The notes under the pieces were generated by a model that made no database searches, was not told the origin of the DNA, and worked only from the letters and a program-made list of their open reading frames with translations. A DNA stretch of 64,000 nt from Primulina eburnea (Eukaryota; Streptophyta; Magnoliopsida; Lamiales; Gesneriaceae): the NCBI RefSeq assembly GCF_022965805.1, contig NC_133103.1, forward strand, positions 33,761,281 through 33,825,280. The letters run 5' to 3'. Below are positions 17,952-61,850 of this stretch, in pieces. The position numbers and the translations under genes are program-made. The first letter of the stretch is position 1, and each line of letters starts with the position of its first letter.

Positions 17952-18094
17952 CGCACCCGCGCTCGAAAGAGGGCCGCACCCGCGGTCTTGCTAAAAAAAA
18001 AAAAAAAATTTATTTTTTTTTTTAAATTTTTTTTTTTTCCCTAGACTGTACCGCACCCGCGGTCCAGTCTGCAGCGCACCCACGGTCCTTTGGC
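17951..18094 (+). repeat. U3 modules (ACCGCACCCGCGGT type) and A/T homopolymers of element 4 3' LTR
   Basis: Modules gcgcacccgcgct (17951), ccgcacccgcggtc (17974), ccgcacccgcggtcc (about 18052) and gcgcacccacggtcc (about 18074) flank long A and T runs at 17992-18040. They are in the same transcriptional sense as the modules of element 3, although the LTRs are otherwise unrelated. Confidence 0.8.
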
Positions 18095-18131
18095 GCACTT
18101 CCGTGTCAAATTTGCTAGTTATCTTATTTAG

Positions 18132-18540: not shown

Positions 18541-19722
18541 ACTTGTCATCCTCAAACGGATGGACAAACTGAAGTTGTCAATAGAACTTTGGGAACACTT
18601 TTGCGTGTTATTCTTAAAAAGAACTTGGATTGACATTTCTATGGACTTTATTTTGGGGTTGCCTAGGACTAAGAAAGGGAGAGATTCTATTTTTGTTGTT
18701 GTGGATATATTCTCTAAGATGGAACATTTTATAGCTTGTCATAAAACCAATGATGTTTCAAACATTGAGGATTTGTTCTTTAGAGAAGTCGTTAGGTTGC
18801 ATGTCATGCCTAGAACTATTATTTCTGGTCGCGATGTTAAATTCTTGAGTTACTTTTGGAAGACTTTATGGGCAAAACTTGGCACAAAATTGTTGTCTTC
18901 TAATACTTGTCATCCTCAAACGGATGGACAAACTGAAGTTGTCAATAGAACTTTGGGAACACTTTTGCATGCTATTCTTAAAAAGAACTTGGATTGACAT
19001 TTCTATTGATTTTATTTTGGGTTTGCCTAGGACTAAGAAGGGGAGGGATTCTATTTTTGTTGTTGTGGATAGATTCTCTAAGATGGCACATTTTATAGCT
19101 TGTCATAAAACCGATGATGCTTCAAACATTGCGGATTTTTTCTTTAGAGAAGTCGTTAAGTTGCATGGCATGCCTAGGACTATTGTTTTTGGTCGTGATG
19201 TTAAATTCTTGAGTTACTTTTGGAAGACTTTATGGGCTAAACTTGGCACAAAGTTGTTGTTTTCTACTACTTGTCATCCTCAAACAGATGGACAAACTGA
19301 AGTTGTCAATAGAACTTTGGGAACAATTTTGCGTGCTATTCTTAAAAAGAACTTGGATTGACATTTCGATGGACTTTATTTTGGGTTGCCTAGGACTAAG
19401 AAGGGGAGGGATTCTATTTTTGTTGTTGTGGATAGATTCTCTAAGATGGCACATTTTATAGCTTGTCATAAAATCGATGATGATTCAAACATTGCGGATT
19501 TGTTCTTTAGAGAAGTCGTTAGCTTCCATGGCATGCCTAGGACTATTGTTTCTGGTCGCGATGTTAAACTCTTGAGTTACTTTTGGAATACTTTATGGCC
19601 TAAACTTGGCACAAAATTGTTGTTTTCTACTACTTGTCATCCTCAAACGGATGGACAAATTGAAGTTGTCAATAGAATTTTGGGAACACTTTTGCGTGCT
19701 ATTCTTAAAAAGAACTTGGATT

Positions 19723-20086
19723 GACATTTCTATGGACTTTATTTTGGGGTTGCCTAAGACTAAGAAGGGGAGAGATTCTAATTTTGTTGTTGTGGATAGA
19801 TTCTCTAAGATGACACATTTTATAGCTTGTCATAAAACCGATGATGCTTCAAACATTGCGGATTTGTTCTTTAGAGAAGTCGTTAGGTTGCATGGCATTC
19901 CTAGGACTATTGTTTCTGGTCGCGATGTTAAATTCTTGAGTCACTTTTGGAAGACTTTATGGGCTAAACTTGGCACAAAATTGTTCTTTTCTACTACTTG
20001 TCACCCTCAAACGGATGGACAAACTGAAGATGTCAATAGAACTTTGGGAACACTTTTGCGTGCTATTCTTAAAAAGAACTTGGATT
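19723..20086 (+). repeat. Reference monomer of the satellite (364 bp)
   Basis: The in-frame translation contains [70 protein letters not shown] and [17 protein letters not shown], then TGA. The first catalytic Asp is at 19735-19737 and the Glu at 20026-20028. The second position, where the family has Asp, is GGT (Gly) at 19918-19920; it is 61 codons after the first Asp and 36 before the Glu, so DD35E spacing is kept. Because 364 is not a multiple of three, the frame shifts at each junction (KKNLD-stop in one frame, [11 protein letters not shown] in the next) and no poly-integrase can be translated. Confidence 0.95.
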
Positions 20087-23000
20087 GACATTTCTATGGA
20101 CTTTATTTTGGGGTTGCCTACGACTAAGAAGGGGAGAGATTCTATTTTTGTTGTTGTGGATAGATTCTCTAAGATGGCACATTTTATAACTTGTCATAAA
20201 ACCGATGATGCTTCTAACATTGCGGATTTGTTCTTTAGAGAAGTCGTTAGGTTGCATGGCATGCCTAGGACTATTGTTTCTGTTCGCGATGTTAAATTCT
20301 TGAGTTACTTTTGGAAGACTTTATGGGCTAAACTTGGCACAAAATTGTTGATTTCTACTACTTGTCATCCTCAAACGGATGGACAAACTGAAGTTGTCAA
20401 TAGAACTTTGGGAACACTTTTGCGTGCTATTCTTAAAAAGAACTTTGATTGAAATTTCTATGGACGTTATTTTCGGGTTGCCTAGGACTAAGAAGGGGAG
20501 GGATTATATTTTTGTTGTTGTGTATAGATTCTCTAAGATGGCACATTTTATAGCTTGTCATAAAACCGATGATGCTTTAAACATGGCGGATTTGTTCTTT
20601 AGAGAAGTCGTTAGGTTTCATGGCATGCCTAGGACTATTGTTTCTAGTCGCGATGTTAAATTTTTGAGTTACTTTTGGAAGACTTTATGGGCTAAACTTG
20701 GCACAAAATTGTTGTTTTTTACTACTTGTCATCCTCAAACGGATGGACAAACTGAAGTTGTCATTAGAACTTTGGGAACACTTTTGCGTGCTATTCTTAA
20801 AAAGAACTTGGATTGACATTTCTATTGATTTTATTTTGGGGTTGCCTAGGACTAAGAAGGGGAGGTATTCTATTTTTGTTGTTGTGGATAGATTCTCTAT
20901 GATGGCACATTTTATAGCTTGTCATAAAACGATGATGCTTCAAACATTGCGGATTTGTTCTTTAGAGAAGTCGTTAGGTTGCTTGGCATGCCTAGGACTA
21001 TTGTTTCTGATCGCGATAGTAAAATCTTGAGTTACTTTTGGATGACTTTATTGCTAAACTTGGCACAAAATTGTTGTTTTCTACTACTTTTCATCCTCAA
21101 ACGGATGGACAAACTGAAGTTGTCAATAGAACTTTGGGAATACTTTTGCGTGCTATTCTTAAAAAGAACTTGGATTGACATTTCTATGGACTTTATTTTG
21201 GGGTTGCCTACGACTAAGAAGGGGAGAGATTCTATTTTTGTTGTTGTGGATAGATTCTCTAAGATGACATATTTTATAGCTTGTCATAAAACCGATGATG
21301 CTTCAAACATTGCGGATTTTTTCTTTAGAGAAGTCGTTAGGTTGCATGGCATGCCTAGGACTATTGTTTCTAGTCGCGATGTTAAATTCTTGAGTTACTT
21401 TTGGAAGACTTTATGGGCTAAACTTGGCACAAAATTATTGTTTTCTACTACTTTTCATCCTCAAACGGATGGACAAACTGAAGTTTTCAATAGAACTTTG
21501 GGAACACTTTTGCGTGTTATTCTTAAAAAGAACTTGGATTGACATTTCTATGGACTTAATTTTGGGGTTGCCTAGGACTAAGAAAGGGAGGGATTCTATT
21601 TTTGTTGTTGTGGATAGATTCTCTAAGATGGCTCATTTTATAGCTTGTCATAAAACCGATGATGCTTTAAACATTGCGGATTTGTTCTTTAGAGAAGTCG
21701 TTAGGTTGCATGGCATGCCTAAGAAAATTGTTTCTGGTCGCGATGTTAAATTCTTGAGTTACTTTTGGAAGACTTTATGGGCTAAACTTGGCACAAAATT
21801 GTTGATTTCTACTACTTGTCATCCTCAAACGGATGGACAAACTGAAGTTGTCAATAGAACTTTGGGAACACTTTTGCGTGCTATTCTTAAAAAGAACTTG
21901 GATTGACATTTCTATGGACGTTATTTTCGGGTTGCCTAGGACTAAGAAGGGGAGGGATTATATTTTTGTTGTTGTGTGTAGATTCTCTAAGATGGCACAT
22001 TTTATAGCTTGTCATAAAACCGATGATGCTTTAAACATTGCGGATTTGTTCTTTAGAGAAGTCGTTAGGTTGCATGGCATGCCTAGGACTATTGTTTCTA
22101 GTCGCGATGTTAAATTTTTGAGTTACTTTTGGAAGACTTTATGGGCTAAACTTGGCACAAAATTGTTGTTTTTTACTACTTGTCATCCTCAAACGGATGG
22201 ACAAACTGAAGTTGTCAATAGAACTTTGGGAACACTTTTGCGTGCTATTCTTAAAAAGAACTTGGATTGACATTTCTATTGATTTTATTTTGGGGTTGCC
22301 TAGGAATAAGAAGGGGAGGTATTCTATTTTTGTTGTTGTGGATAGATTCTCTATGATGGCACATTTTATAGCTTGTCATAAAACGATGATGCTTCAAACA
22401 TTGCGGATTTGTTCTTTAGAGAAGTCGTTAGGTTGCTTGGCATGCCTAGGACTATTGTTTCTGATCACGATAGTAAAATCTTGAGTTACTTTTGGAAGAC
22501 TTTATGGGCTAAACTTGGCACAAAATTGTTGTTTTCTACTACTTTTCATCCTCAAACGGATGGACAAACTGAAGTTGTCAATAGAACTTTGGGAACACTT
22601 TTGCGTGCTATTCTTAAAAAGAACTTGGATTGACATTTCTATGGACTTTATTTTGGGGTTGCCTACGACTAAGAAGGGGAAAGATTCTATTTTTGTTGTT
22701 GTGGATAGATTTTCTAAGATGACACATTTTATAGCTTGTCATAAAACCGATGATGCTTCAAACATTGCGGATTTTTTCTTTAGAGAAGTCGTTAGGTTGC
22801 ATGGCATGCCTAGGACTATTGTTTCTAGTCGCGATGTTAAATTCTTGAGTTACTTTTGGAAGACTTTATGGGCTAAATTTGGCACAAAATTGTTGTTTTC
22901 TACTACTTTTCATCCTCAAACGGATGGACAAACTGAAGTTGTCCATAGAACTTTGGGAACACTTTTGCGTGTTATTCTTAAAAAGAACTTGGATTGACAT

Positions 23001-26000
23001 TTCTATGGACTTAATTTTGGGGTTGCCTAGGACTAAGAAAGGGAGGGATTCTATTTTTGTTGTTGTGGATAGATTCTCTAAGATGGCTCATTTTATAGCT
23101 TGTCATAAAACCGATGATGCTTTAAACATTGCGGATTTGTTCTTTAGAGAAGTCGTTAGGTTGCATGCCATGCCTAAGAATATTGTTTCTGGTCGCGATG
23201 TTAAATTCTTGAGTTACTTTTGGAAGACTTTATGGGCTAAACTTGGCACAAAATTGTTGTTTTCTACTACTTGTCATCCTGAAACGGATGGACAAACTGA
23301 AGTTGTCAATAGAACTTTCGGAACACTTTTGCGTGCTATTCTTAAAAAGAACTTGGATTGACATTTCTATGGACTTTATTTTGGGGTTGCCTAGGACTAA
23401 GAAGGGGAGAGATTCTATTTTTGTTGTTGTGGATAGATTCTCTAAGATGGAACATTTTATAGCTTGTCATAAAACCAATGATGTTTCAAACATTGAGGAT
23501 TTGTTCTTTAGAGAAGTCGTTAGGTTGCATGGCATGCCTAGAACTATTATTTCTAGTCGCGATGTTAAATTCTTGAGTTACTTTTGGAAGACTTTATGGG
23601 ATAAACTTGGCACAAAATTGTTGTCTTCTAATACTTGTCATCCTCAAACGGATGGACAAAATGAAGTTGTCAATAGAACTTTAGGAACACTTTTGCGTGC
23701 TATTCTTAAAAAGAACTTGGATTGACATTTCTATGGACGTTATTTTCGGGTTGCCTAGGACTAAGAAGGGGAGGGATTATATTTTTGTTGTTGTGTATAG
23801 ATTCTCTAAGATGACACATTTTATAGCTTGTCATAAAACCGATGATGCTTTAAACATTGCGGATTTGTTCTTTAGAGAAGTCGTTAGGTTGCATGGCATG
23901 CCTAGGACTATTGTTTCTAGTCGCGATGTTAAATTCTTGATTTACTTTTGGAAGACTTTATGGGCTAAACTTGGCACAAAATTGTTGTTTTTTACTACTT
24001 GTCATCCTCAAACGGATGGACAAACTGAAGTTGTCAATAGAACTTTGGGAACACTTTTGCGTGCTATTCTTAAAAAGAACTTGGATTGACATTTCTATGG
24101 ACTTTAATTTGGGGTTGCCTAAGACTAAGAAGGGGAGAGATTCTATTTTTGTTGTTGTGGATAGATTATCTAAGATGACACATTTTATAGCTTGTCATAA
24201 AACCGATGATGCTTCAAACATTGCGGATTTGTTCTTTAGAGAAGTCGTTAGGTTGCATGGCATGCCTAGGACTATTGTTTCTGGTCGCGATGTTAAATTC
24301 TTGAGTTACTTTTGGAAGACTTTATGGGCTAAACTTGGCACAAAATTGTTCTTTTCTACTACTTGTCATCCTCAAACGGATGGACAAACTGAAGTTGTCA
24401 ATAGAACTTTGGGAACACTTTAGCGTGCTATTCTTAAAAAGAACTTGGATTGACATTTCTTTGGACGTTATTTTCGGGTTGCCTAGGCCTAAGAAGGGGA
24501 GGGATTATATTTCTGTTGTTGTGTATAGATTCTCTAAGATGGCACATTTTATAGCTTGTCATAAAACCGATGATGCTTTAAACATTGCGGATTTGTTCTT
24601 TAGAGAAGTCGTTAGGTTGCATGGCATGCCTAGGACTATTGTTTCTAGTAGCGATGTTAAATTTTTGAGTTACTTTTGGAAGAGTTTATGGGCTAAACTT
24701 GGCACAAAATTGTTGTTTTTTACTACTTGTCATCCTTAAACGGATGGACAAACTGAAGTTGTCAATAGAACTTTGGGAACACTTTTGTGTGCTATTCTTA
24801 AAAAGAACTTGGATTGACATTTCTATTGATTTTATTTTGGGGTTGCCTAGGACTAAGAAGGGGAGGTATTCTATTTTTGTTGTTGTGGATAGATTCTCTA
24901 TGATGGCACATTTTATAGCTTGTCATAAACCGATGATGCTTCAAACATTGCGGATTTGTTCTTTAGAGAAGTCGTTAGGTTGCATGGAATGCCTAGGACT
25001 ATTGTTTCTGGTCGCGATGTTAAATTCTTGAGTTACTTTTGGAAGACTTTATGGGCTAAACTTGGCACAAAATTGTTGGTTTTTACTACTTGTCATCCTT
25101 AAACGGATGGACAAACTGAAGTTGTCAATAGAACTTTGGGAACACTTTTGCGTGCTATTCTTAAAAAGAACTTGGATTGACATTTCTATGGACTTTATTT
25201 TGGGGTTGCCTAAGACTAAGAAGGGGAGAGATTCTATTTTTGTTGTTGTGGATAGATTATCTAAGATGACACATTTTATAGCTTGTCATAAAACCGATGA
25301 TGCTTCGAACATTGCGGATTTGTTCTTTAGAGAAGTCGTTAGGTTGCATGGCATGCCTAGGACTATTGTTTCTGGTCGCGATGTTAATTTCTTGAGTTAC
25401 TTTTGGAAGACTTTATGGGCTAAACTTGGCACAAAATTGTTGTTTTCTACTACTTTTCATCCTCAAACGGATGGACAAACTGAAGTTGTCCATAGAACTT
25501 TGGGAACACTTTTGCGTGTTATTCTTAAAAAGAACTTGGATTGACATTTCTATGGACTTAATTTTGGGGTTGCCTAGGACTAAGAAAGGGAGGGATTCTA
25601 TTTTTTTTGTCGTGGATAGATTCTCTAAGATGGCTCATTTTATAGCTTGTCATAAAACCGATGATGCTTCAAACATTGCGGATTTGTTCTTTAGAGAAGT
25701 CGTTAGGTTGCATGGCATGCCTAGGACTATTGTTTCTCGTCGCGATGTTAAATTCTTGAGTTACTTTTGGAAGACTTTATGGGCTAAACTTGGCACAAAA
25801 TTGTTCTTTTCTACTACTTGTCATCCTCAAACGGATGGACAAACTGAAGTTGTCAATAGGACTTTGGGAATACTTTTGCGTGCTATTCTTAAAAAGAACT
25901 TGGATTGACATTTCTATAGACGTTATTTTCGGGTTGCCTAGGACTAAGAAGGGAGGGATTATATTTTTGTTGTTGTGGATAGATTCTCTAAGATGACACA

Positions 26001-28650
26001 TTTTATAGCTTGTCATAAAACCGATGATGCTTCAAACATTGCGGATTTGTTCTTTAGAGAAGTCGTTAGGTTGAATGGCATGCCTAGAACTATTATTTCT
26101 GGTCGCGATGTTAAATTCTTGAGTTACTTTTGGAAGACTTTATGGGATAAACTTGGCACAAAATTGTTGTTTTTTACTACTTGTCATCCTCAAACGGATG
26201 GACAAACTGAAGTTGTCAATAGAACTTTGGGAACACTTTTGCGTGCTATTCTTAAAAAGAACTTGGATTGACATTTCTATTGATTTTATTTTGGGGTTGC
26301 CTAGGACTAAGAAGGGGAGGTATTCTATTTTTGTTGTTGTGGATAGATTCTCTATGATGGCACATTTTATAGCTTGTCATAAAACGATGATGCTTCAAAC
26401 ATTGCGGATTTGTTCTTTAGAGAAGTCGTTAGGTTGCTTGGCATGCCTAGGACTATTGTTTCTGATCACGATAGTAAAATCTTGAGTTACTTTTGGAAGA
26501 CTTTATGGGCTAAACTTGGCACAAAATTGTTGTTTTCTACTACTTTTCATCCTCAAACGGATGGACAAACTGAAGTTGTCAATAGAACTTGGGAACACTT
26601 TTGCGTGCTATTCTTAAAAAGAACTTGGATTGACATTTCTATGGACGTTATTTTCGGGTTGTCTACGACTAAGAAGGGGAGAGATTCTATTTTTGTTGTT
26701 GTGGATAGATTCTCTAAGATGACACATTTTATAGCTTGTCATAAAACCGATGATGCTTCAAACATTGCGGATTTTTTCTTTAGAGAAGTCGTTAGGTTGC
26801 ATGGCATGCCTAGGACTATTGTTTCTAGTCGCGATGTTAAATTCTTGAGTTACTTTTGGACGACTTTATGGGCTAAACTTGGCACAAAATTGTTCTTTTC
26901 TACTAACTTGTCATCCTCAAACGGATGGACAAACTGAAGTTGTCAATAGAACTTTGGGAACACTTTAGCGTGCTATTCTTAAAAAGAACTTGGATTGACA
27001 TTTCTATGGACGTTATTTCCGGGTTGCCTAGGACTAAGAAGGGAGGGATTATATTTTTGTTGTTGTGGATAGATTCTCTAAGATGACACATTTTATAGCT
27101 TGTCATAAAACCGATGATGCTTCAAACATTGCGGATTTGTTCTTTAGAGAAGTCGTTAGGTTGCATGGCATGCCTAGAACTATTATTTCTGGTCGCGATG
27201 TTAAATTCTTGAGTTACTTTTGGAAGACTTTATGGGATAAACTTGGCACAAAATTGTTGTCTTCTAATACTTGTCATCCTCAAAGGGATGGACAAACTGA
27301 AGTTGTCAATAGAACTTTGGGAACACTTTTGCGTGCTATTCTTAAAAAGAACTTGGATTGACATTTCTATGGACTTTATTTTGGGGTTGCCTAAGACTAA
27401 GAAGGGGAGAGATTCTATTTTTGTTGTTGTGGATAGATTATCTAAGATGACACATTTTATAGCTTGTCATAAAACCGATGATGCTTCAAACATTGCGGAT
27501 TTGTTCTTTATAGAAGTCGTTAGGTTGCATGGCATTCCTAGGACTATTGTTTCTGGTCGCGATGTTAAATTTTTGAGTTACTTTTGGAAGACTTTATGGG
27601 CTAAACTTGGCACAAAATTGTTGGTTTTTACTACTTGTCATCCTTAAACGGATGGACAAACTGAAGTTGTCAATAGAACTTTGGGAACACTTTTGCGTGC
27701 TATTCTTAAAAAGAACTTGGATTGACATTTCTATAAACTTTATTTTGGGGTTGCCTAAGACTAAGAAGGGGAGAGATTCCATTTTTGTTGTTGTGGATAG
27801 ATTATCTAAGATGACACATTTTATAGCTTGTCATAAAACCGAAGATGCTTCAAACATTGCGGATTTGTTCTTTAGAGAAGTCGTTAGGTTGCATGGCATG
27901 CCTAGGACTATTGTTTCTGGTCGCGATGTTAAATTCTTGAGTTACTTTTGGAAGACTTTATGGGCCAAACTTGGCACAAAATTGTTCTTTTCTACTACTT
28001 GTCATCCTCAAACGGATGGACAAACTGAAGTTGTCAATAGAACTTTGGGAACACTTTTGCGTGCTATTCTTAAAAAGAACTTGGATTGACTTTTCTATGG
28101 ACGTTATTTTCGGGTTGCCTAGGACTAAGAAGGGGAGGGATTATATTTTTGTTGTTGTGTATAGATTCTCTAAGATGGCACATTTTATAGCTTGTCATAA
28201 AACCGATGATGCTTCAAACATTGCAGATTTGTTCTTTAGAGAAGTCGTTAGGTTGCATTCATGCCTAGGACTATTGTTTCTGATCGCGATGTTAAATTCT
28301 TGATTTACTTTTGGAAGACTTTATGGGCTAAACTTGGCACAAAATTGTTGTTTTCTACTACATGCCATCCTCAAACGGATGGACAAACTGAAGTTTTCAA
28401 TAGAACTTTGGGAACACTTTTGCGTGCTATTCTTAAAAAGAACTTTGATTGTTATTTCTATGGACTTTATTTTGGGGTTGCCTAAGACTAAGAAGGGGAG
28501 AGATTCTATTTTTGTTGTTGTGGATAGATTCTCTAAGATGACACATTTTATAGCTTGTCATAAAACCGATGATGCTTCAAACATTGCGGATTTGTTCTTT
28601 AGAGAAGTCGTTAGGTTGCGTGGCATGCCTAGGACTATTGTTTCTGGTCG

Positions 28651-28716
28651 CCTAGATTAGTAGCTAAAGAATTCCTTCAAGAATATTGAGTCGAACCCTT
28701 TTAGAGATAGGGAAAA
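28651..28716 (+). other. 66-bp unique insertion inside a satellite monomer
   Basis: Between ggtcg and cgatgtt of a monomer are 66 bases (cctagattagtagctaaag … gagataggg aaaa) that do not occur in other monomers. There is no TG…CA and no clear target duplication; the origin is not recognised. Confidence 0.85.
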
Positions 28717-31254
28717 CGATGTTAAATTCTTGAGTTACTTTTGGAAGATTTTATGGGCTAAACTTGGCACAAAATTGTTCTTTTCTACTACTTGTCATCC
28801 TCAAACGGATGGACAAACTAAAGTTGTCAATAGAACTTTGGGAATACTTTTGCGTGCTATTCTTAAAAAGAACTTGGATTGACATTTCTATGGACGTTAT
28901 TTTCGGGTTGCCTAGGACTAAGAAGGGAGGGATTATATTTTTGTTGTTGTGGATAGATTCTCTAAGATGACACATTTTATAGCTTGTCATAAAACCAATG
29001 ATCCTTCAAACATTGCGGATTTGTTCATTAGAGAAGTCTTTAGGTTGCATGGCATGCCTAGGACTATTGTTTCTGGTCGCGATGTTAAATTCTTGAGTTA
29101 CTTTTGGAAGACTTTATGGGCTAAACTTGGCACAAAATTGTTCTTTTCTACTACTTGTCATCCTCAAACGGATGGACAAACTGAAGTTGTCAATAGAACT
29201 TTGGGAACACTTTTGCGTGCTATTCTTAAAAGAACTTGGATTGACATTTCCATGGACGTTATTTTCGGGTTGCCTAGGACTAAGAAGGGGAGGGATTATA
29301 TTTTTGTTGTTGTGTATAGATTTTCTAAGATGGCACATTTTATAGCTTGTCATAAAACCGATGATGCTTTAAACATTGCGGATTAGTTCTTTAGAGAAGT
29401 CGTTAGGTTGCATGGCATGCCTAGGACTATTGTTTCTAGTCGCGATGTTAAATTTTTGAGTTACTTTTGGAAGACATTATGGGCTAAACTTGGCACAAAA
29501 TTGTTGTTTTTTACTACTTGTCATCCTCAAACGGATGGACAAACTGAAGTTGTCAATAGAACTTTGGGAACACTTTTGCGTGCTATTCTTAAAAAGAACT
29601 TGGATTGACATTTCTATTGATTTTATTTTGGGGTTGCCTAGGACTAAGAATGGGAGGTATTCTATTTTTGTTGTTGTGGATAGATTCTCTATGATGGCAC
29701 ATTTTATAGCTTGTCATAAACCGATGATGCTTCAAACATTGCGGATTTGTTCTTTAGAGAAGTCGTTAGGTTGCATGGCATGCCTAGGACTATTGTTTCT
29801 GGTCGCGATGTTAAATTCTTGAGTTACTTTTGGAAGAATTTATGGGCTAAACTTGGCACAAAATTGTTGGTTTTTACTACTTGTCATCCTTAAACGGATG
29901 GACAAACTGAAGTTGTCAATAGAACTTTGGGAACACTTTTGCGTGCTATTCTTAAAAAGAACTTGGATTGACATTTCTATGCACTTTATTTTGGGGTTGC
30001 CTAAAACTAAGAAGGGGAGAGATTCTATTTTTGTTGTTGTGGATAGATTATCTAAGATGACACATTTTATAGCTTGTCATAAAACCGATGATGCTTCAAA
30101 CATTGCGGATTTGTTCTTTAGAGAAGTCGTTAGGGTTGCATGGCATGCCTAGGACTATTGTTTCTGGTCGCGATGTTAAATTCTTGAGTTACTTTTGGAA
30201 GACTTTATGGGCTAAACTTGGCACAAAATTGTTGTTTTCTACTACTTTTCATCCTCAAACGGATGGACAAACTGAAGTTGTCCATAGAACTTTGGGAACA
30301 CTTTTGCGTGTTATTCTTAAAAAGAACTTGGATTGACATTTCTATGGACTTAATTTTGGGGTTGCCTAGGACTAAGAAAGGGAGGGATTCTATTTTTGTT
30401 GTTGTGGATAGATTCTCTAAGATGGCTCATTTTATAGCTTGTCATAAAACCGATGATGCTTCAAACATTGCGGATTTGTTCTTTAGAGAAGTCGTTAGGT
30501 TGTATTCATGCCTAGGACTATTGTTTCTGGTCGCGATGTTAAATTCTTGAGTTACTTTTGGAAGACTTTATGGGCTAAACTTGGCACAAAATTGTTGTTT
30601 TCTACTATTTGCCATCCTCAAACGGATGGACAAACTGAAGTTTTCAATAGAACTTTGGGAACACTTTTGCGTGCTATTCTTAAAAAGAACTTGGATTGAT
30701 ATTTCGATGGACTTTATTTTGTTGTTGCCGAGGACTAAGAAGGGGAGTGATTATATTTTTGTTGTTGTGGATAGATTCTCTAAGATGGCACATTTTATAG
30801 CTTGTCATAAAACCGATGATGCTTCAAACTTTGCGGATTTGTTCTTTAGAGAAGTCGTTAGGTTGCATGGCATGCCTAGGACTATTGTTTCTAGTCGCGA
30901 TGTTAAATTCTTGAGTTACTTTTGGAAGACTTTATGGGCTAAACTTGGCACAAAATTGTTGTTTTTTACTACTTGTCATCCTCAAACGGATGGGCAAACT
31001 GAAGTTGTCAATAAAACTTTGGGAACACTTTTGCGTGCTATTCTTAAAAAGAACTTGGATTGACATTTCTATGGACTTTATTTTGGGGTTGCCTAAGACT
31101 AAGAAGGGGAGAGATTCTATTTTTGTTGTTGTGGATAGATTCTCTATGATGGCACATTTATAGCTTGTCATAAACCGATGATGCTTCAAACATTGCGGAT
31201 TTTTTCTTTAGAGAAGTCGTTAGGTTGCATGGCATGCCTAGGACTATTTTTTCT

Positions 31255-31354
31255 NNNNNNNNNNNNNNNNNNNNNNNNNNNNNNNNNNNNNNNNNNNNNN
31301 NNNNNNNNNNNNNNNNNNNNNNNNNNNNNNNNNNNNNNNNNNNNNNNNNNNNNN
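31255..31354. other. Assembly gap (100 N)
   Basis: Exactly 100 N, the usual placeholder for a gap of unknown size. Satellite lies to the left and LTR sequence to the right. Confidence 0.99.
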
Positions 31355-31853: not shown

Positions 31854-31868
31854 TTTCTCCCCCCTCTT
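31854..31868 (-). promoter_or_regulatory. Polypurine tract of element 5
   Basis: The minus strand reads AAGAGGGGGGAGAAA directly before TGTAATGCCG, the LTR start. It is the plus-strand DNA primer site of the element and shows that this LTR is a 3' LTR. Confidence 0.9.
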
Positions 31869-33660: not shown

Positions 33661-33670
33661 ATCCAATGGG

Positions 33671-50300: not shown

Positions 50301-53099
50301 TAAGATGACACATTTTATAGCTTGTCATAAAACCGATGATGCTTCAAACATTGAGTATTTGTTCTTTAGAGAAGTCGTTAGGTTGCATGGCATGCCTAGG
50401 ACTATTGTTTCTGGTCGCGATGTTAAATTCTTGAGTTACTTTTGGAAGACTTTATGGGCTAAACTTGGCACAAAATTGTTCTTTTCTACTACTTGTCATC
50501 CTCAAACGGATGGACAAACTGAAGTTGTCAATAGAACTTTGGGAACACTTTTGCGTGCTATTCTTAAAAAGAACTTGGATTGATATTTCTATGGACTTTA
50601 TTTTGTGGTTGCCTAAGACTAAGAAGGGGAGAGATTCTATTTTTGTTGTTGTGGATAGATTCTCTAAGATGACACATTTTATAGCTTGTCATAAAACCGA
50701 TGATGCTTCAAACATTGCGGATTTGTTCTTTAGAGAAGTCGTTAGGTTGCATGGCATGCCTAGAACTATTGTTTCTGGTCGCGATGTTAAATTCTTGAGT
50801 TACTTTTGGAAAACTTTATGGGCTAAACTTGGCACAAAATTGTTCTTTTCTACTACTTGTCATCCTCAAACGGATGGACAAACTGAAGTTGTCAATAGAA
50901 CATTGGGAACACTTTTGCGTGCTATTCTTAAAAAGAACTTGGATTGACATTTCTATGGACTTTATTTTGGGGTTGCCTACGAATAAGGAGCGGAGAGATT
51001 TATTTTTGTTGTTGTGGATAGATTCTCTAAGATGGTACATTTTATAGCTTTTCATAAAACCGATGATGCTTCAAACATTGCGGATTTGTTCTTTAGAGAA
51101 GTCGTTACGTTGCATGGCATGCCTAGGACTATTGTTTCCGTTCGCGATGTTAAATTCTTGAGTTACTTTTGGAAGACTTTATGGGCTAAACTTGGCACAA
51201 AATTGTTGATTTCTACTACTTGTCATCCTCAAACGGATGGACAAACTGAAGTTGTCAATAGAACTTTGGGAACACTTTTGCGTGCTATTCTTAAAAAGAA
51301 CTTGTATTGACATTTCTATGGACGTTATTTTCTGGTTGCCTAGGACTAAGAAGGGGAGGGATTATATTTTTGTTGTTGTGTATAGATTCTCTAAGATGGC
51401 ACATTTTATAGCTTGTCATAAAACCGATGATGCTTTAAACATTGCGGATTTGTTCTTTAGAGAAGTTGTTAGGTTGCATGGCATGCCTAGGACTATTGTT
51501 TCTAGTCGCGATGTTAAATTTTAGAGTTACTTTTGGAAGACTTTATGGGCTAAACTTGGCACAAAATTGTTGTTTTTTACTACTTGTCATCCTCAAACGG
51601 ATGGACAAACTGAAGTTGTCAATAGAACTTTGGGAACACTTTTGCGTGCTATTCTTAAAAAGAACTTGGATTGACATTTCTATTGATTATATTTTGGGGT
51701 TGCCTAAGACTAAGAAGGGGAGAGATTCTATTTTTGTTGTTGTGGATAGATTCTCTAAGATGACACATTTTATAGCTTGTCATAAAACCGATGATGCTTC
51801 AAACATTGCGGATTTGTTCTTTAGAGAAGTCGTTAGGTTGCATGGCATGCCTAGGAACATTTTTTCTGGTCGCGATGTTAAATTCTTGAGTTACTTTTGG
51901 AAGACTTTATGGGCTAAACTTGGCACAAAATTGTTCTTTTCTACTACTTGTCATCCTCAAACGGATGGACAAACTGAAGTTGTCAATAGAACTTTGGGAA
52001 CACTTTTGCGTGCTTTTCTTAAAAAGAACTTGGATTGACATTTCTATGGACTTTATTTTTGGGTTGCCTACGAATAAGGAGGGGAGAGATTTTATTTTTG
52101 TTGTTGTGGATAGATTCTCTAAGATGGCACATTTTATAGCTTTTCATAAAACCGATGATGCTTCAAACATTGCGGATTTGTTCTTTAGAGAAGTCGTTAC
52201 GTTGCATGGCATGCCTAGGACTATTGTTTCTGTTCGCGATGTTAAATTCTTGAGTTACTTTTGGAAGACTTTATGGGCTAAACTTGGCACAAAATTGTTG
52301 ATTTCTACTACTTGTCATCCTCAAACGGATAGACAAACTGAAGTTGTCAATAGAACTTTGGGAACACTTTTGCGTGCTATTCTTAAAAAGAACTTGTATT
52401 GACATTTCTATGGACGTTATTTTCTGGTTGCCTAGGACTAAGAAGGGGAGGGATTATATTTTTGTTGTTGTGTATAGATTCTCTAAGATGGCACATTTTA
52501 TAGCTTGTCATAAAACCGATGATGCTTTAAACATTGCGGATTTGTTCTTTAGAGAAGTTGTTAGGTTGCATGGCATGCCTAGGACTATTGTTTCTAGTCG
52601 CGATGTTAAATTTTAGAGTTACTTTTGGAAGACTTTATGGGCTAAACTTGGCACAAAATTGTTGTTTTTTACTACTTGTCATCCTCAAACGGATGGACAA
52701 ACTGAAGTTGTCAATAGAACTTTGGTAACACTTTTGCGTGCTATTCTTAAAAAGAACTTGGATTGACATTTCTATTGATTATATTTTGGGGTTGCCTAGG
52801 ACTAAGAAAGGGAGGTATTCTATTTTTGTTGATGTGGATAGATTCTCTATGATGGCACATTTTATAACTTGTCATAAAACGATGATGCATCAAACATTGC
52901 GGATTTGTTCTTTAGAGAAGTCGTTAGGTTGCTTGGCATGCCTAGGACTATTGTTTCTGATCGCGATATTAAAATCTTGAGTTACTTTTGGAAGACTTTA
53001 TGGGCTAAACTTGGCACAAAATTGTTGTTTTCTACTACTTTTCATCCTCAAACAGATGGACAAACTGAAGTTGTCAATAGAACTTTGGGAACACTTTTG
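47311..53099 (+). repeat. Higher-order repeat copy 3 (5789 bp)
   Basis: Same monomer order and the same marker deletion as copy 2; the two differ by eye only at scattered single bases and one-base indels (for example a lost a at about 47185 and a lost t at about 51000). Confidence 0.93.
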
Positions 53100-56000
53100 C
53101 GTTCTATGGACTTTATTTTGGGGTTGCCTACGACTAAGAAAGGGAGAGATTCTATTTTTGTTGTTGTGGATAAATTCTATAAGATGGCACATTTTATAGC
53201 TTGTCATAAAACCGATGATGCTTCAAACATTGCGGATTTGTTCTTTAGAGAAGTCGTTAGGTTGCATGGCATGCCTAGGACTATTGTTTATGGTCGCGAT
53301 GTTAAATTCTTGAGTTACTTTCGGAAAACTTTATGGGCTAAACTTGGCACAAAATTGTTGTTTTCTACTACTTGTCATCCTCAAACGGATGGACAAACTG
53401 AAGTTGTCCATAGAACTTTGGGAACACTTTTGCGTGTTATTCTTAAAAAGAACTTGGATTCACATTTCTATGGACTTAATTTTGGGGTTGCCTAGGACTA
53501 AGAAGGGGAGGGATTCTATTTTTGTTGTTGTGGATAGATTCTCTAAGATGGCACATTTTATAGCTTGTCATAAAACCGATGATGCTTTAAACATTGCGGA
53601 TTTGTTCTTTAGAGAAGTCGTTAGGTTGCATGGCATGCCTAAGACTATTGTTTCTGGTCGCGATGTTAAATTCATGAGTTACTTTTGGAAGACTTTATGG
53701 GCTAAACTTGGCACAAAATTGTTGTTTTCTACTACTTGTCATCCTCAAACGGATGGACAAACTGAAGTTGTCAATAGAACTTTGGGAACACTTTTGCGTG
53801 CTATTCTTAAAAAGAATTTGGATTGACATTTCTATGGACTTTATTTTGGGGTTGCCTAGGACTAAGAAGGGGAGAGATTCTATTTTTGTTGTTGTGGATA
53901 GATTCTCTAAGATGGAACATTTATAGCTTGTCATAAAACCAATGATGTTTCAAACATTGAGGATTTGTTCTTTAGAGAAGTCGTTAGGTTGTATGGCATG
54001 CCTAGAACTATTATTTCTGGTCGCGATGTTAAATTCTTGAGTTACTTTTGGAAGACTTTATGGGCTAAACTTGGCACAAAATTGTTGTCTTCTAATACTT
54101 GTCATCCTCAAACGGATGGACAAACTGAAGTTTTCAATAGAACTTTGGGAACACTTTTGCGTGCTATTCTTAAATAGAACTTGGATTGACATTTCGATGG
54201 ACTTTATTTTGGGGTTGCCTAGGACTAAGAAGGGGAGTGATTCTATTTTTGTTGTTGTGGATAGATTCTCTAAGATGGCACATTTTATAGCTTATCATAA
54301 AACCGATGATGCTTCAAACATTGCAGATTTTTTCTTTAGAGAAGTCGTTAGGTTGCATGGAATGCCTAGGACTATTGTTTCTGGTCGGGATGTTAAATTC
54401 TTGAGTTACTTTTGGAAGACTTTATGGGCTAAACTTGGCACAAAATTGTTCTTTTCTACTACTTGTCATCCTCAAACGGATGGACAAACTTAAGTTGTCA
54501 ATAGAACATTGGGAACACTTTTGCGTGCTATTCTTAAAAACAAGTTGGATTGACATTTCTATGGACTTTATTTTGGGGTTGTCTACGACTAAGAAGGGGA
54601 GAGATTCTATTTTTGTTGTTGTGGATAGATTCTTTAAGATGGCACATTTTATAGCTTGTCATAAAACCGATGATGCTTCAAACATTGCGGATTTGTTCTT
54701 TAGAGAAGTCGTTAGGTTGCATGGCATGCCTAGGACTATTGTTTCTGTTCGCGATGTTAAATTCTTGAGTTACTTTTGGAAGACTTTACGGGCTAAACTT
54801 GGCACAAAATTGTTGATTTCTACTACTTGTCATCCTCAAACGGATGGACAAACTGAAGTTGTCAATAGAACTTTGAGAACACTTTTGCGTGCTATTCTTA
54901 AAAAGAACTTGGATTGACATTTCTATGGACGTTATTTTCGGGTTGCCTAGGACTAAGAAGGGGAGAGATTATATTTTTATTGTTGTGTATAGATTCTCTA
55001 AGATGGCACATTTTATATCTTGTCATAAAACCGATGATGCTTTAAACATTGCGGATTTGTTCTTTAGAGAAGTCGTTAGGTTGCATGGCATGCCTAGGAC
55101 TATTGTTTCTAGTCGCGATGTTAAATTTTTGAGTTACTTTTGGAAGACTTTATGGGCTAAACTTAGCACAAAATTGTTGTTTTTTACTACTTGTCATCCT
55201 CAAACGGATGGACAAACTGAAGTTGTCAATAGAACTTTGGGAACACTTTTGCGTGCTATTCTTAAAAAGAACTTGGATTGACATTTCTATTGATTTTATT
55301 TTTGGGTTGCCTAGGACTAAGAAGGGGAGAGATTCTATTTTTGTTGTTGTGGATAGATTCTTTAAGATGGCACATTTTATAGCTTGTCATAAAACCGATG
55401 ATGCTTCAAACATTGCGGATTTGTTCTTTAGAGAAGTCGTTAGGTTGCATGGCATGCCTAGGACTATTGTTTCTGTTCGCGATGTTAAATTCTTGAGTTA
55501 CTTTTGGAAGACTTTATGGGCTAAACTTGGCCCAAAATTGTTGATTTCTACTACTTGTCATCCTCAAACGGATGGACAAACTGAAGTTGTCAATAGAACT
55601 TTGAGAACACTTTTGCGTGCTATTCTTAAAAAGAACTTGGATTGACATTTCTATGGACTTTATTTTGTGGTTGCCTAAGACTAAGAAGGGGAGAGATTCT
55701 ATTTTTGTTGTTGTGGATAGATTCTCTAAGATGACACATTTTATAGCTTGTCATAAAACCGATGATGCTTCAAACATTGCGGATTTGTTCTTTAGAGAAG
55801 TCGTTAGGTTGCATGGCATGCCTAGGACTATTGTTTCTGGTCGCGATGTTAAATTCTTGAGTTACTTTTGGAAGACTTTATGGGCTAAACTTGGCACAAA
55901 ATTGTTCTTTTCTACTACTTGTCATCCTCAAACGGATGGACAAACTGAAGTTGTCAATAGAACTTTGGGAACACTTTTGCGTGCTTTTCTTAAAAAGAAC

Positions 56001-58890
56001 TTGGATTGACATTTCTATGGACTTTATTTTGGGGTTGCCTAAGACTAAGAAGGGGAGAGATTCTATTTTTGTTGTTGTGGATAGATTCTCTAAGATGACA
56101 CATTTTATAGCTTGTCATAAAACCGATGATGCTTCAAACATTGAGTATTTGTTCTTTAGAGAAGTCGTTAGGTTGCATGGCATGCCTAGGACTATTGTTT
56201 CTGGTCGCGATGTTAAATTCTTGAGTTACTTTTGGAAGACTTTATGGGCTAAACTTGGCACAAAATTGTTCTTTTCTACTACTTGTCATCCTCAAACGGA
56301 TGGACAAACTGAAGTTGTCAATAGAACTTTGGGAACACTTTTGCGTGCTATTCTTAAAAAGAACTTGGATTGATATTTCTATGGACTTTATTTTGTGGTT
56401 GCCTAAGACTAAGAAGGGGAGAGATTCTATTTTTGTTGTTGTGGATAGATTCTCTAAGATGACACATTTTATAGCTTGTCATAAAACCGATGATGCTTCA
56501 AACATTGCGGATTTGTTCTTTAGAGAAGTCGTTAGGTTGCATGGCATGCCTAGGAACATTGTTTCTGGTCGCGATGTTAAATTCTTGAGTTACTTTTGGA
56601 AAACTTTATGGGCTCAACTTGGCACAAAATTGTTCTTTTCTACTACTTGTCATCCTCAAACGGATGGACAAACTGAAGTTGTCAATAGAACATTGGGAAC
56701 ACTTTTGCGTGCTTTTCTTAAAAAGAACTTGGATTGACATTTCTATGGACTTTATTTTGGGGTTGCCTACGAATAAGGAGCGGAGAGATTTTATTTTTGT
56801 TGTTGTGGATAGATTCTCTAAGATGGTACATTTTATAGCTTTTCATAAAACCGATGATGCTTCAAACATTGCGGATTTGTTCTTTAGAGAAGTCGTTACG
56901 TTGCATGGCATGCCTAGGACTATTGTTTCCGTTCGCGATGTTAAATTCTTGAGTTACTTTTGGAAGACTTTATGGGCTAAACTTGGCACAAAATTGTTGA
57001 TTTGTACTACTTGTCATCCTCAAACGGATGGACAAACTGAAGTTGTCAATAGAACTTTGGGAACACTTTTGCGTGCTATTCTTAAAAAGAACTTGTATTG
57101 ACATTTCTATGGACGTTATTTTCTGGTTGCCTAGGACTAAGAAGGGGAGGGATTATATTTTTGTTGTTGTGTATAGATTCTCTAAGATGGCACATTTTAT
57201 AGCTTGTCATAAAACCGATGATGCTTTAAACATTGCGGATTTGTTCTTTAGAGAAGTTGTTAGGTTGCATGGCATGCCTAGGACTATTGTTTCTAGTCGC
57301 GATGTTAAATTTTAGAGTTACTTTTGGAAGACTTTATGGGCTAAACTTGGCACAAAATTGTTGTTTTTTACTACTTGTCATCCTCAAACGGATGGACAAA
57401 CTGAAGTTGTCAATAGAACTTTGGGAACACTTTTGCGTGCTATTCTTAAAAAGAACTTGGATTGACATTTCTATTGATTATATTTTGGGGTTGCCTAAGA
57501 CTAAGAAGGGGAGAGATTCTATTTTTGTTGTTGTGGATAGATTCTCTAAGATGACACATTTTATAGCTTGTCATAAAACCGATGATGCTTCAAACATTGC
57601 GGATTTGTTCTTTAGAGAAGTCGTTAGGTTGCATGGCATGCCTAGGAACATTGTTTCTGGTCGCGATGTTAAATTCTTGAGTTACTTTTGGAAGACTTTA
57701 TGGGCTAAACTTGGCACAAAATTGTTCTTTTCTACTACTTGTCATCCTCAAACGGATGGACAAACTGAAGTTGTCAATAGAACTTTGGGAACACTTTTGC
57801 GTGCTTTTCTTAAAAAGAACTTGGATTGACATTTCTATGGACTTTATTTTTGGGTTGCCTACGAATAAGGAGGGGAGAGATTTTATTTTTGTTGTTGTGG
57901 ATAGATTCTCTAAGATGGCACATTTTATAGCTTTTCATAAAACCGATGATGCTTCAAACATTGCGGATTTGTTCTTTAGAGAAGTCGTTACGTTGCATGG
58001 CATGCCTAGGACTATTGTTTCTGTTCGCGATGTTAAATTCTTGAGTTACTTTTGGAAGACTTTATGGGCTAAACTTGGCACAAAATTGTTGATTTCTACT
58101 ACTTATCATCCTCAAACGGATAGACAAACTGAAGTTGTCAATAGAACTTTGGGAACACTTTTGCGTGCTATTCTTAAAAAGAACTTGTATTGACATTTCT
58201 ATGGACGTTATTTTCTGGTTGCCTAGGACTAAGAAGGGGAGGGATTATATTTTTGTTGTTGTGTATAGATTCTCTAAGATGGCACATTTTATAGCTTGTC
58301 ATAAAACCGATGATGCTTTAAACATTGCGGATTTGTTCTTTAGAGAAGTTGTTAGGTTGCATGGCATGCCTAGGACTATTGTTTCTAGTCGCGATGTTAA
58401 ATTTTAGAGTTACTTTTGGAAGACTTTATGGGCTAAACTTGGCACAAAATTGTTGTTTTTTACTACTTGTCATCCTCAAACGGATGGACAAACTGAAGTT
58501 GTCAATAGAACTTTGGGAACACTTTTGCGTGCTATTCTTAAAAAGAACTTGGATTGACATTTCTATTGATTATATTTTGGGGTTGCCTAGGACTAAGAAA
58601 GGGAGGTATTCTATTTTTGTTGATGTGGATAGATTCTCTATGATGGCACATTTTATAACTTGTCATAAAACGATGATGCATCAAACATTGCGGATTTGTT
58701 CTTTAGAGAAGTCGTTAGGTTGCTTGGCATGCCTAGGACTATTGTTTCTGATCGCGATATTAAAATCTTGAGTTACTTTTGGAAGACTTTATGGGCTAAA
58801 CTTGGCACAAAATTGTTGTTTTCTACTACTTTTCATCCTCAAACAGATGGACAAACTGAAGTTGTCAATAGAACTTTGGGAACACTTTTG
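53100..58890 (+). repeat. Higher-order repeat copy 4 (5791 bp)
   Basis: Same order and markers. Landmarks recur at constant distances: 48282 to 54071 and 51237 to 57028. Confidence 0.93.
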
Positions 58891-61100
58891 CGTTCTATGG
58901 ACTTTATTTTGGGGTTGCCTACGACTAAGAAAGGGAGAGATTCTATTTTTGTTGTTGTGGATAAATTCTATAAGATGGCACATTTTATAGCTTGTCATAA
59001 AACCGATGATGCTTCAAACATTGCGGATTTGTTCTTTAGAGAAGTCGTTAGGTTGCATGGCATGCCTAGGACTATTGTTTATGGTAGCGATGTTAAATTC
59101 TTGAGTTACTTTCGGAAAACTTTATGGGCTAAACTTGGCACAAAATTGTTGTTTTCTACTACTTGTCATCCTCAAACGGATGGACAAACTGAAGTTGTCC
59201 ATAGAACTTTGGGAACACTTTTGCGTGTTATTCTTAAAAAGAACTTGGATTCACATTTCTATGGACTTAATTTTGGGGTTGCCTAGGACTAAGAAGGGGA
59301 GGGATTCTATTTTTGTTGTTGTGGATAGATTCTCTAAGATGGCACATTTTATAGCTTGTCGTAAAACCGATGATGCTTTAAACATTGCGGATTTGTTCTT
59401 TAGAGAAGTCGTTAGGTTGCATGGCATGCCTAAGACTATTGTTTCTGGTCGCGATGTTAAATTCTTGAGTTACTTTTGGAAGACTTTATGGGCTAAACTT
59501 GGCACAAAATTGTTGTTTTCTACTACTTGTCATCCTCAAACGGATGGACAAACTGAAGTTGTCAATAGAACTTTGGGAACACTTTTGCGTGCTATTCTTA
59601 AAAAGAATTTGGATTGACATTCCTATGGACTTTATTTTGGGGTTGCCTAGGACTAAGAAGGGGAGAGATTCTATTTTTGTTGTTGTGGATAGATTCTCTA
59701 AGATGGAACATTTATAGCTTGTCATAAAACCAATGATGTTTCAAACATTGAGGATTTGTTCTTTAGAGAAGTCGTTAGGTTGTATGGCATGCCTAGAACT
59801 ATTATTTCTGGTCGCGATGTTAAATTCTTGAGTTACTTTTGGAAGACTTTATGGGCTAAACTTGGCACAAAATTGTTGTCTTCTAATACTTGTCATCCTC
59901 AAACGGATGGACAAACTGAAGTTTTCAATAGAACTTTGGGAACACTTTTGCGTGCTATTCTTAAATAGAACTTGGATTGACATTTCGATGGACTTTATTT
60001 TGGGGTTGCCTAGGACTAAGAAGGGGAGTGATTCTATTTTTGTTGTTGTGGATAGATTCTCTAAGATGGCACATTTTATAGCTTATCATAAAACCGATGA
60101 TGCTTCAAACATTGCAGATTTTTTCTTTAGAGAAGTCGTTAGGTTGCATGGAATGCCTAGGACTATTGTTTCTGGTCGGGATGTTAAATTCTTGAGTTAC
60201 TTTTGGAAGACTTTATGGGCTAAACTTGGCACAAAATTGTTCTTTTCTACTACTTGTCATCCTCAAACGGATGGACAAACTTAAGTTGTCAATAGAACAT
60301 TGGGAACACTTTTGCGTGCTATTCTTAAAAAGAAGTTGGATTGACATTTCTATGGACTTTATTTTGGGGTTGTCTACGACTAAGAAGGGGAGAGATTCTA
60401 TTTTTGTTGTTGTGGATAGATTCTTTAAGATGGCACATTTTATAGCTTGTCATAAAACCGATGATGCTTCAAACATTGCGGATTTGTTCTTTAGAGAAGT
60501 CGTTAGGTTGCATGGCATGCCTAGGACTATTGTTTCTGTTCGCGATGTTAAATTCTTGAGTTACTTTTGGAAGACTTTACGGGCTAAACTTGGCACAAAA
60601 TTGTTGATTTCTACTACTTGTCATCCTCAAACGGATGGACAAACTGAAGTTGTCAATAGAACTTTGAGAACACTTTTGCGTGCTATTCTTAAAAAGAACT
60701 TAGATTGACATTTCTATGGACGTTATTTTCGGGTTGCCTAGGACTAAGAAGGGGAGGGATTATATTTTTATTGTTGTGTATAGATTCTCTAAGATGGCAC
60801 ATTTTATAGCTTGTCATAAAACCGATGATGCTTTAAACATTGCGGATTTGTTCTTTAGAGAAGTCGTTAGGTTGCATGGCATGCCTAGGACTATTGTTTC
60901 TAGTCGCGATGTTAAATTTTTGAGTTACTTTTGGAAGACTTTATGGGCTAAACTTAGCACAAAATTGTTGTTTTTTACTACTTGTCATCCTCAAACGGAT
61001 GGACAAACTGAAGTTGTCAATAGAACTTTGGGAACACTTTTGCGTGCTATTCTTAAAAAGAACTTGGATTGACATTTCTATTGATTTTATTTTTGGGTTG
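58891..61100 (+). repeat. Higher-order repeat copy 5 (partial)
   Basis: The first six monomers follow copies 2-4. In the seventh (about 61.08-61.15 kb) it switches to a monomer of the RFSMMAHF…SDRDIKIL class, so the repeat order is broken by recombination before the array is cut by the copia LTR. Confidence 0.85.
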
Positions 61101-61850
61101 CCTAGGACTAAGAAGGGGAGGAATTCTATTTTTGTTGTTGTGGATAGATTCTCTATGATGGCACATTTTATTGCTTGTCATAAAACGATGATGCTTCAAA
61201 CATTGCGGATTTGTTCTTTAGAGAAGTCGTTAGGTTGCTTGGCATGCCTAGGACTATTGTTTCTGATCGCGATATTAAAATCTTGAGTTACTTTTGGAAG
61301 ACTTTATGGGCTAAACTTGGCACAAAATTGTTGTTTTCTACTACTTTTCATCCTCAAACGGATGGACAAACTGAAGTTGTCAATAGAACTTTGGGAACTC
61401 TTTTGCGTGCTATTTTTAAAAAGAACTTGGATTGACATTTCTATGGAATTTATTTTGGGGTTGCCTACGACTAAGAAGGGGAGAGATTCTATTTTTGTTG
61501 TTGTGGATAGATTCTCTAAGATGGCACATTTTATAGCTTGTCATAAAACCGATGATGCTTCAAACATTGCGGATTTTTTCTTTAGAAAAGTCGTTAGGTT
61601 GCATGGCATGCCTAGGACTATTGTTTCTAGTCGCGATGTTAAATTCTTGAGTAACTTTTGGAAGACTTTATGGGCTAAACTTGGCACAAAATTTTTGTTT
61701 TTTACTACTTGTCATCCTCAAACGGATGGACAAACTGAAGTTGTCAATAGAACTTTGGGAACACTTTTGCGTGCTATTCTTAAAAAGAACTTGGATTGAA
61801 ATTTCTATGGACTTTATTTTGGGGTTGCCAAAGACTAAGAAGGGGAGAGA

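What the first reader, a model, noticed from the sequence alone, without database searches (positions are those of the whole stretch)
18541..61850. A satellite made from the catalytic core of a retrotransposon integrase
More than 100 head-to-tail 364-bp monomers each carry one Ty3/gypsy integrase core, cut just before the first catalytic Asp and just after the Glu, with DD35E spacing. Satellites derived from retrotransposons are known, usually from LTR or untranslated parts; one built from the DDE core of pol is unusual. The monomer length is about two nucleosome repeats, and the integrase resembles chromovirus types, so a centromeric or pericentromeric role is possible but not shown.
Basis: partly seen in the sequence, partly recalled or inferred. 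Interest (0 to 1): 0.9.

Follow-up and report, generated by a model that had tools for sequence, protein, structure and literature searches.

The report
Plant satellite made from integrase core
A block of short repeats on a plant chromosome was built by copying, over and over, the central piece of a jumping gene's integrase; the repeats no longer make protein, occur tens of thousands of times on many chromosomes, and look like centromere-type DNA, although that role is not shown.

Summary
In detail: 104 bounded head-to-tail monomers (70 of 364 bp, mean pairwise identity 95%), at 18541-31254 and 35267-61851, with an N gap and another element between. Each is one Ty3/gypsy integrase-core segment. 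Corrections: D35E spacing is kept, but the middle catalytic Asp is lost in 94 of 104 monomers; in the consensus it is the only residue rare among the 120 best homologues. Coding is gone: 364 is not a multiple of 3, TGA sits at the junction, substitutions ignore codon position. The edges are transposon insertions, not array ends: the left one has a 5-bp target duplication, and satellite resumes on both sides of the window. Genome-wide the exact junction 31-mer occurs 32,392 times (control 0), about 11.8 Mb or 1.45% of the assembly as a floor; capped listings put arrays on 9 or more chromosome-sized contigs. Six sampled loci elsewhere are 99.5-99.9% identical; the window's block is more diverged, with a 16-monomer higher-order repeat in its right half. 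Best reading: a major non-coding retrotransposon-derived satellite in transposon-rich, centromere-like heterochromatin. CENH3 binding is untested. Satellites from gag and LTR/UTR are in print; my searches found none from the integrase core.

The parts
18541..31254 (+). Satellite array, left part: 364-bp integrase-core monomers, no higher-order repeat seen
31255..31354 (.). Assembly gap (100 N) inside the array; the left junction of the middle insert is lost here
31355..35266 (.). Foreign insert between the two array parts; 33674-35250 matches window 6157-7755 in reverse at 82%; related sequence recurs in many fetched stretches
35267..61851 (+). Satellite array, right part, with a 16-monomer (~5.79 kb) higher-order repeat; monomers 16 apart 99.5% identical against 94.8% for neighbours
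41508..41840 (+). Short 333-bp step between anchors that recurs once per higher-order unit (also at 47299, 53088, 58879)
37932..38221 (+). Internal partial duplication (period 142) giving a 504-bp step
14595..15004 (+). 3' part of the 5' LTR of an LTR element inserted in the array; its 5' part lies left of the window (L009 6711-7210)
15007..15018 (+). Primer-binding site TGGTATCAGAGC (initiator Met tRNA type; motif recalled)
   Evidence: sequence
15589..16056 (+). Open frame with a CX2CX4HX4C zinc-knuckle pattern read by eye (gag-like); no Pfam hit
17197..17388 (+). Degenerate integrase N-terminal remnant in the inserted element (30% identity to P0005 residues 1-64, E=9.5e-7)
17628..18540 (+). 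3' LTR (TGATATG...TTATCA) of the inserted element; followed by target duplication ACTTG at 18541-18545
61852..63959 (-). LTR of a copia-like element inserted in reverse (type recalled); second LTR 99.7% identical in L011 4994-7100, after which the satellite resumes

Best explanation
This is a major, non-coding satellite of a plant genome. A ~364-bp piece of the integrase coding region of a Ty3/gypsy element was joined end to end, so that its 3' side (...KKNL) meets its 5' side (WIDISMD...). The source is most likely the large dispersed family of this integrase type still present in the genome (inferred; shown at protein level only). The joint may have run through a short shared CTTG, by circularisation or tandem duplication (inferred, one side untested). 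The unit was amplified to tens of thousands of copies and spread over many chromosomes by unequal exchange or rolling-circle products (inferred from homogeneity and the higher-order repeat). It is not read as protein. It works as structural repeat DNA: a block of heterochromatin that takes LTR-retrotransposon insertions, most likely centromeric or pericentromeric (inferred, not shown).
For: Array and homology. Not coding: length 3n+1, TGA at the junction, substitutions 333/385/342 at codon positions 1/2/3, distinct synonymous 47 of 234 and non-synonymous 164 of 804 possible. Abundance: 32,392 exact junction 31-mers, control 0; the exact form is 40 of 104 junctions in the window and 57 of 60 in L002-L007, so the true number is higher. 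Spread: 40 contigs in the capped lists, among them C1, C2, C3, C5, C8, C9, C10, C12, C15. Homogenisation: 54 monomers of L002-L007 on five contigs are 99.5-99.9% identical within and between. Satellite in 12 of 24 fetched 9-10 kb stretches of C3, from 33.70 to 34.41 Mb. Integrase family with sequence beyond the monomer: 150 of 150 scored hits cover at least 160 of P0005's 162 residues, with open frames up to 1688 aa. Insertions into monomers: 5-bp duplications, read by eye, at 4 of 6 sites with both edges held.
Against: No CENH3, FISH or methylation data. C3 has a second group of hits at 43.3-43.97 Mb, ~9 Mb from the window's block, and C9 has hits at 9.13 and 15.82 Mb: unusual for one centromere per chromosome unless scaffolding is wrong. 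Stop-making changes are fewer than the substitution spectrum predicts (26 against 46). The parental left-side context was never tested (search unanswered). No parental DNA was obtained, so monomer-parent nucleotide identity is unknown. L002-L007 were returned as best matches to the window, which favours homogeneity.
Confidence: 0.82

Rival explanations
1. It is the functional centromere satellite: the homogenised arrays carry CENH3, and the window is an older, transposon-broken flank of such a core.
For: Genome-wide abundance, arrays on at least 9 chromosome-sized contigs, very homogeneous arrays elsewhere and a more divergent block here, an inserted element with CRM-like traits (5-bp target duplication, tRNA-Met primer site, TGATA/TATCA termini, open frame running into the 3' LTR; compare PMC3059260 section 7).
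Against: Two groups of hits on C3 and on C9; no chromatin data; no 10-bp periodicity.
Confidence: 0.45
2. It is a pericentromeric, interstitial or knob-type heterochromatic satellite without kinetochore role.
For: Blocks at more than one place on C3 and C9; dense nested transposons in and around the C3 block.
Against: The points given for a centromere.
Confidence: 0.45
3. The monomers are still made as proteins, a tandem family of small domesticated integrase-like genes.
For: 52 of 104 monomers are open as far as the junction stop; stop-making changes are rarer than the spectrum predicts, 26 against 46.
Against: No codon-position bias, synonymous and non-synonymous variants equally frequent, a stop and frame change at the consensus junction, middle catalytic Asp lost in 94 of 104.
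Confidence: 0.02
4. The array is an assembly artefact.
For: N gap at 31255-31354; higher-order copies nearly identical.
Against: 85 distinct monomers of 104, insertions with target duplications, tens of thousands of copies over many contigs.
Confidence: 0.03

Closest known systems
CRM1TR and CRM4TR of maize (PMC3648361; passages seen, with part of the abstract)
   Same: Tandem repeats made wholly from Ty3/gypsy elements; CRM1TR lies in a pericentromere
   Different: Those come from LTR and UTR and sit at one or two loci; this one comes from integrase coding sequence and is genome-wide
Ogre 3'UTR-derived satellites of Lathyrus sativus (PMC7004042; passages seen)
   Same: Satellites born from Ty3/gypsy elements and expanded into long arrays
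   Different: Their tandem repeats pre-exist in the 3'UTR of the elements; here the source is a coding segment for which no prior tandem form was seen
Cereba gag-derived 250-bp centromeric repeat of wheat and rye, Cheng and Murata 2003 (not held; seen only as cited in PMC3648361 and PMC9659126)
   Same: Satellite from a coding part of a Ty3/gypsy element
   Different: gag with CAA repeats at 53% protein similarity; here an integrase core whose consensus departs from the 120 best homologues at one rare residue
Sugarcane centromeric repeats Ss68 and Ss166 (PMC5278356; passages seen)
   Same: Centromere-enriched repeats similar to CRM gag-pol
   Different: Long stretches of gag-pol (1.2-3.9 kb); the passages seen do not describe them as short-unit tandem arrays
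CRM clade centromeric retrotransposons (PMC3059260; section 7 and passages seen)
   Same: Compared with the element inserted at 18540: tRNA-Met primer site, 5-bp target duplication, near-matching LTR termini
   Different: The inserted element is degenerate, and it is not the satellite itself

Membership tests
Satellite DNA | Long head-to-tail arrays of one unit, in many copies at several loci | tested here: met
Retrotransposon-derived satellite | Whole monomer homologous to an element part that also exists in dispersed elements | tested here: met
   at protein level only; nucleotide identity to a parent not tested
Retrotransposon-derived satellite | Source is LTR or UTR, as in the commonest printed cases | tested here: not met
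   monomer lies in integrase coding sequence
Functional DDE integrase gene | Intact D, D, E triad and frame under constraint | tested here: not met
   D2 lost in 94 of 104, no codon-position bias
Centromere satellite | CENH3 association | not testable with these tools
   no chromatin data
Centromere satellite | One main block per chromosome | tested here: inconclusive
   hits on at least 9 chromosome-sized contigs but two groups on C3 and on C9; listings are capped
Higher-order repeat organisation | Multi-monomer unit more alike than neighbouring monomers | tested here: met
   16-mer in the right half only: lag 16 0.995, lag 1 0.948; left half lag 16 0.946
CRM clade (element inserted at 18540) | TGATG/CATCA termini, tRNA-Met primer site, 5-bp target duplication, integrase with CR motif | tested here: inconclusive
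   TGATA/TATCA (4 of 5 letters each), primer site and ACTTG present; integrase only a remnant, CR motif not tested
Named chromovirus lineage of the parent (CRM, Tekay, Reina, Galadriel) | Phylogenetic place of the integrase | not tested
   no labelled lineage references at hand

The most novel reading that the evidence does not exclude
The kinetochore-bearing centromere satellite of this plant was replaced recently by repeats cut from the catalytic core of a still abundant retrotransposon's integrase, after that core had lost its middle catalytic Asp: a genome-dominant centromere repeat born from an enzyme's active-site coding sequence rather than from LTR or UTR.
Probability: 0.4. Interest if true: 0.72.

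Novelty: new variant of a known kind. Interest (0 to 1): 0.5.

Why it matters
It is a clear case of a coding segment becoming a genome-wide satellite while a large dispersed family of the same integrase type is still present. That lets the steps from element to satellite (junction, spread, homogenisation, invasion by newer elements) be tested in one genome, and it bears on whether any sequence of suitable length can become centromere-type DNA.

Tried and rejected
Coding function: rejected on frame, junction stop and codon-position counts. Array ends at the given coordinates: rejected, both are insertion edges. Satellite born from, or beside, the LTR that abuts it at 18540: rejected, because the LTR is an insertion with target duplication ACTTG and the same monomer continues on the far side. 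Nucleosome-phasing signal: none. Global alignment of whole higher-order units slipped register in most pairs; the three pairs with the last, partial copy aligned cleanly at 98.7-98.8% over 2,971-2,972 bases. In one search the gaps at monomer positions 359-364 come from my fuzzy cutting of monomers, not from the sequence. L004 and L008 overlap by 3,072 bases, so searches count about eight monomers twice; one search recounts without L008. Right-side parental context CCN-TGGATTGAC: 81 hits, 80 of them CCT, but satellite variants give the same letters (9 hits lie in the C1 31.56 Mb array, and one of the 20 isolated hits among the 43 on chromosomes, C3:33728908, lies in the array part of L020), so this does not prove the parental side. 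Rfam at gathering scores and ARAGORN on the window: nothing.

Literature: searches listed no satellite from an integrase core that I recognised from titles, abstracts and the passages read; only the open-licence library was searched, and Cheng and Murata 2003 is not held. The search for the parental left-side context (AAAAAGAACTTG followed by AAR AC) did not complete.
Full report
Where it lies. The window is C3:33761281-33825280 of an 812-Mb assembly in 1,224 contigs.

The array. TRF reports 364-bp arrays over most of 18541-61851. A 22-base anchor finds 108 copies on the + strand and none on the - strand; 104 monomers are bounded on both sides and average 95.0% pairwise identity, 97.1% to their consensus. 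The array is broken by 100 N at 31255-31354 and a foreign stretch to 35266.

What the monomer is. In one frame the consensus reads as 120 residues of integrase core: Pfam rve (E=4.5e-8, just above its curated cut-off), Ty3 Gag-Pol in the PDB (E=8.8e-30), and 7,468 of 7,509 candidate proteins at E<=0.001, of which the listed best 120 are 79-91% identical. The first Asp is GAC or GAT in 96 of 104 (four gapped), Glu is GAA in 99 of 104, and 35 residues lie between the second site and Glu. At the second site the Asp is lost in 94 of 104: GGT 53, AGT 24, GTT 16, GAT 10, CGT 1. Against those best 120 homologues this is the only consensus residue present in under 5% of them (D in 110, N in 6, G in 2). 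In six other loci (L002-L007, on five contigs) all 54 monomers carry GGT. A search that demands Asp at this place found 776 matches genome-wide, dispersed copies included; 25 of them fall in an array at C1:31.601-31.622 Mb, so some arrays keep it in part.

Not coding. The unit is 3n+1 long and the consensus junction carries TGA. Substitutions fall 333, 385 and 342 on codon positions 1, 2 and 3; distinct synonymous and non-synonymous variants are 47 of 234 and 164 of 804 possible. Stop-making changes are fewer than the spectrum predicts (26 against 46), which goes against wholly free drift, but related copies are not independent.

Edges are insertions. Left of the window the satellite runs to C3:33748990 (L009 6710), ending CTACTACTTG, where an LTR starting TGATATGAT begins; at window 18540 the same family's 3' LTR ends TTATCA and satellite restarts ACTTGTCATCC. 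The 5-bp duplication ACTTG, and the consensus reading straight across it, show an insertion. Its 5' LTR is itself split, with a nested gypsy element between the pieces. The two LTRs are 95.1% alike over 509 columns and 97.1% over 410; at the rate often used for rice (1.3e-8 per site per year, recalled) this is of the order of 1-2 million years, and the array would be at least that old. On the right, a copia-like LTR (99.7% like its partner) starts at 61852 and satellite resumes at L011:7100, without a target duplication, so some rearrangement followed. Of six insertion sites with both edges held, four show a 5-bp duplication by eye (ACTTG, TTCTG, GATTC, AAGTC); the window's right edge and L032 do not. 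The middle insert cannot be judged because its left edge is in the N gap. For GATTC and AAGTC I take the stretch between the edges as one insertion.

The inserted element at 18540 has traits described for CRM elements (PMC3059260 section 7): tRNA-Met primer site, 5-bp target duplication, termini near TGATG/CATCA, a frame running into the 3' LTR. It is degenerate, with a gag-like zinc knuckle by eye and an integrase remnant at 30% identity, and Pfam finds nothing in its two long frames. I leave CRM membership open.

Extent and spread. Of 24 stretches of 9-10 kb fetched on C3, 12 hold satellite, on both strands, from 33.70 to 34.41 Mb; the six from 33.20 to 33.67 Mb hold none. Of 20 stretches of 1.5 kb from 20 to 40 Mb none holds satellite; one 54-bp hit lies in another integrase at 47% identity. 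The exact 31-base junction occurs 32,392 times in the assembly, 0 for the reversed control: at 364 bp each about 11.8 Mb, 1.45%. Since 40 of 104 window junctions and 57 of 60 in L002-L007 keep this exact form, the real number is higher. Capped listings name 40 contigs, nine of them chromosome-sized: C1, C2, C3, C5, C8, C9, C10, C12, C15. C3 has a second group at 43.3-43.97 Mb and C9 hits at 9.13 and 15.82 Mb, which speaks against a simple one-block-per-chromosome picture.

Evolution. Monomers of L002-L007 are 99.5-99.9% identical within and between contigs, the 267 held monomers of the C3 block 94.7%. Their consensus differs from the window's at one site, position 49, apart from a cutting artefact at the end. 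L002-L007 were returned as best matches, which favours likeness. The right half of the window has a 16-monomer unit of about 5,790 bp: monomers 16 apart are 99.5% identical, neighbours 94.8%; ungapped pieces one to three units apart are 99.6-99.8% over 3.9-4.4 kb; the left half shows no such unit. The C3 block therefore looks like an older, locally reorganised part of a family that is homogeneous elsewhere.

Source. A search with P0005, an integrase stretch reaching beyond the monomer, gave 150 of 150 scored hits covering at least 160 of its 162 residues, at 85-88% identity, on C1-C18 and small contigs, two with a stop inside, with open frames up to 1,688 aa. The 88,332 first-look candidates of that search will include satellite copies. 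So a large dispersed family of this integrase type is present beside the satellite. I could not obtain parental DNA, so the founder and its identity to the monomer remain open.

Mechanism. Shown: a coding segment stands as a tandem unit without coding constraint, in tens of thousands of copies on many contigs, homogeneous between sampled contigs, with a higher-order repeat here, and invaded by LTR elements. Inferred: first junction by illegitimate recombination or circularisation, spread by unequal exchange or circles, and centromeric or pericentromeric location.

What is known. Passages read show satellites from LTR/UTR (maize, PMC3648361), 3'UTR (Lathyrus, PMC7004042), and coding parts: gag in rye and wheat, ORF2 of LINE elements, and a CACTA transposase (review PMC9659126), which concludes that any part of an element may serve. 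Sugarcane centromeric repeats resemble CRM gag-pol over 1.2-3.9 kb (PMC5278356). Searches brought up no satellite from an integrase core in this open library. Hence a new variant of a known kind.

The recount replaced earlier figures that counted overlapping loci twice (63 to 54 monomers; 67 of 70 to 57 of 60).

Noticed in passing
window 10291-12582, minus strand: Gypsy gag, protease and partial RT frames of a nested element whose LTR-like flank (12818-14593) is 97% like L009 7404-9198; it sits between the two pieces of the 5' LTR of the element inserted in the array.
   Followed up: partly
window 4986-5807, minus strand: Another Ty3-type gag frame (Pfam Retrotrans_gag 2.4e-17).
   Followed up: no
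window 14279-14335, 17940-18090, 7937-8098, 31515-31733: Short GC-rich repeated motifs (CCGCGGGTGCGG and GCTCGGGCGG types) inside several element ends.
   Followed up: no
window 16576-17787: A 403-aa open frame in the inserted element that runs into its 3' LTR, with no Pfam match and only an integrase N-terminal remnant: a probably non-autonomous element that keeps a long frame.
   Followed up: partly
L031 1253-3407: A solo copia-like LTR inserted in the satellite with target duplication TTCTG.
   Followed up: yes
C1:31601368-31621670: An array in which 25 listed monomers keep the second catalytic Asp codon, unlike the homogenised loci; possibly an older subfamily.
   Followed up: no
C3:43.3-43.97 Mb: A second group of satellite hits on the minus strand of the same chromosome, ~9 Mb from the window; a second block or a scaffolding error.
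   Followed up: no
C4:15688153-15699430: Hits of the right-side context spaced by multiples of about 364, which suggests an array on C4 too.
   Followed up: no
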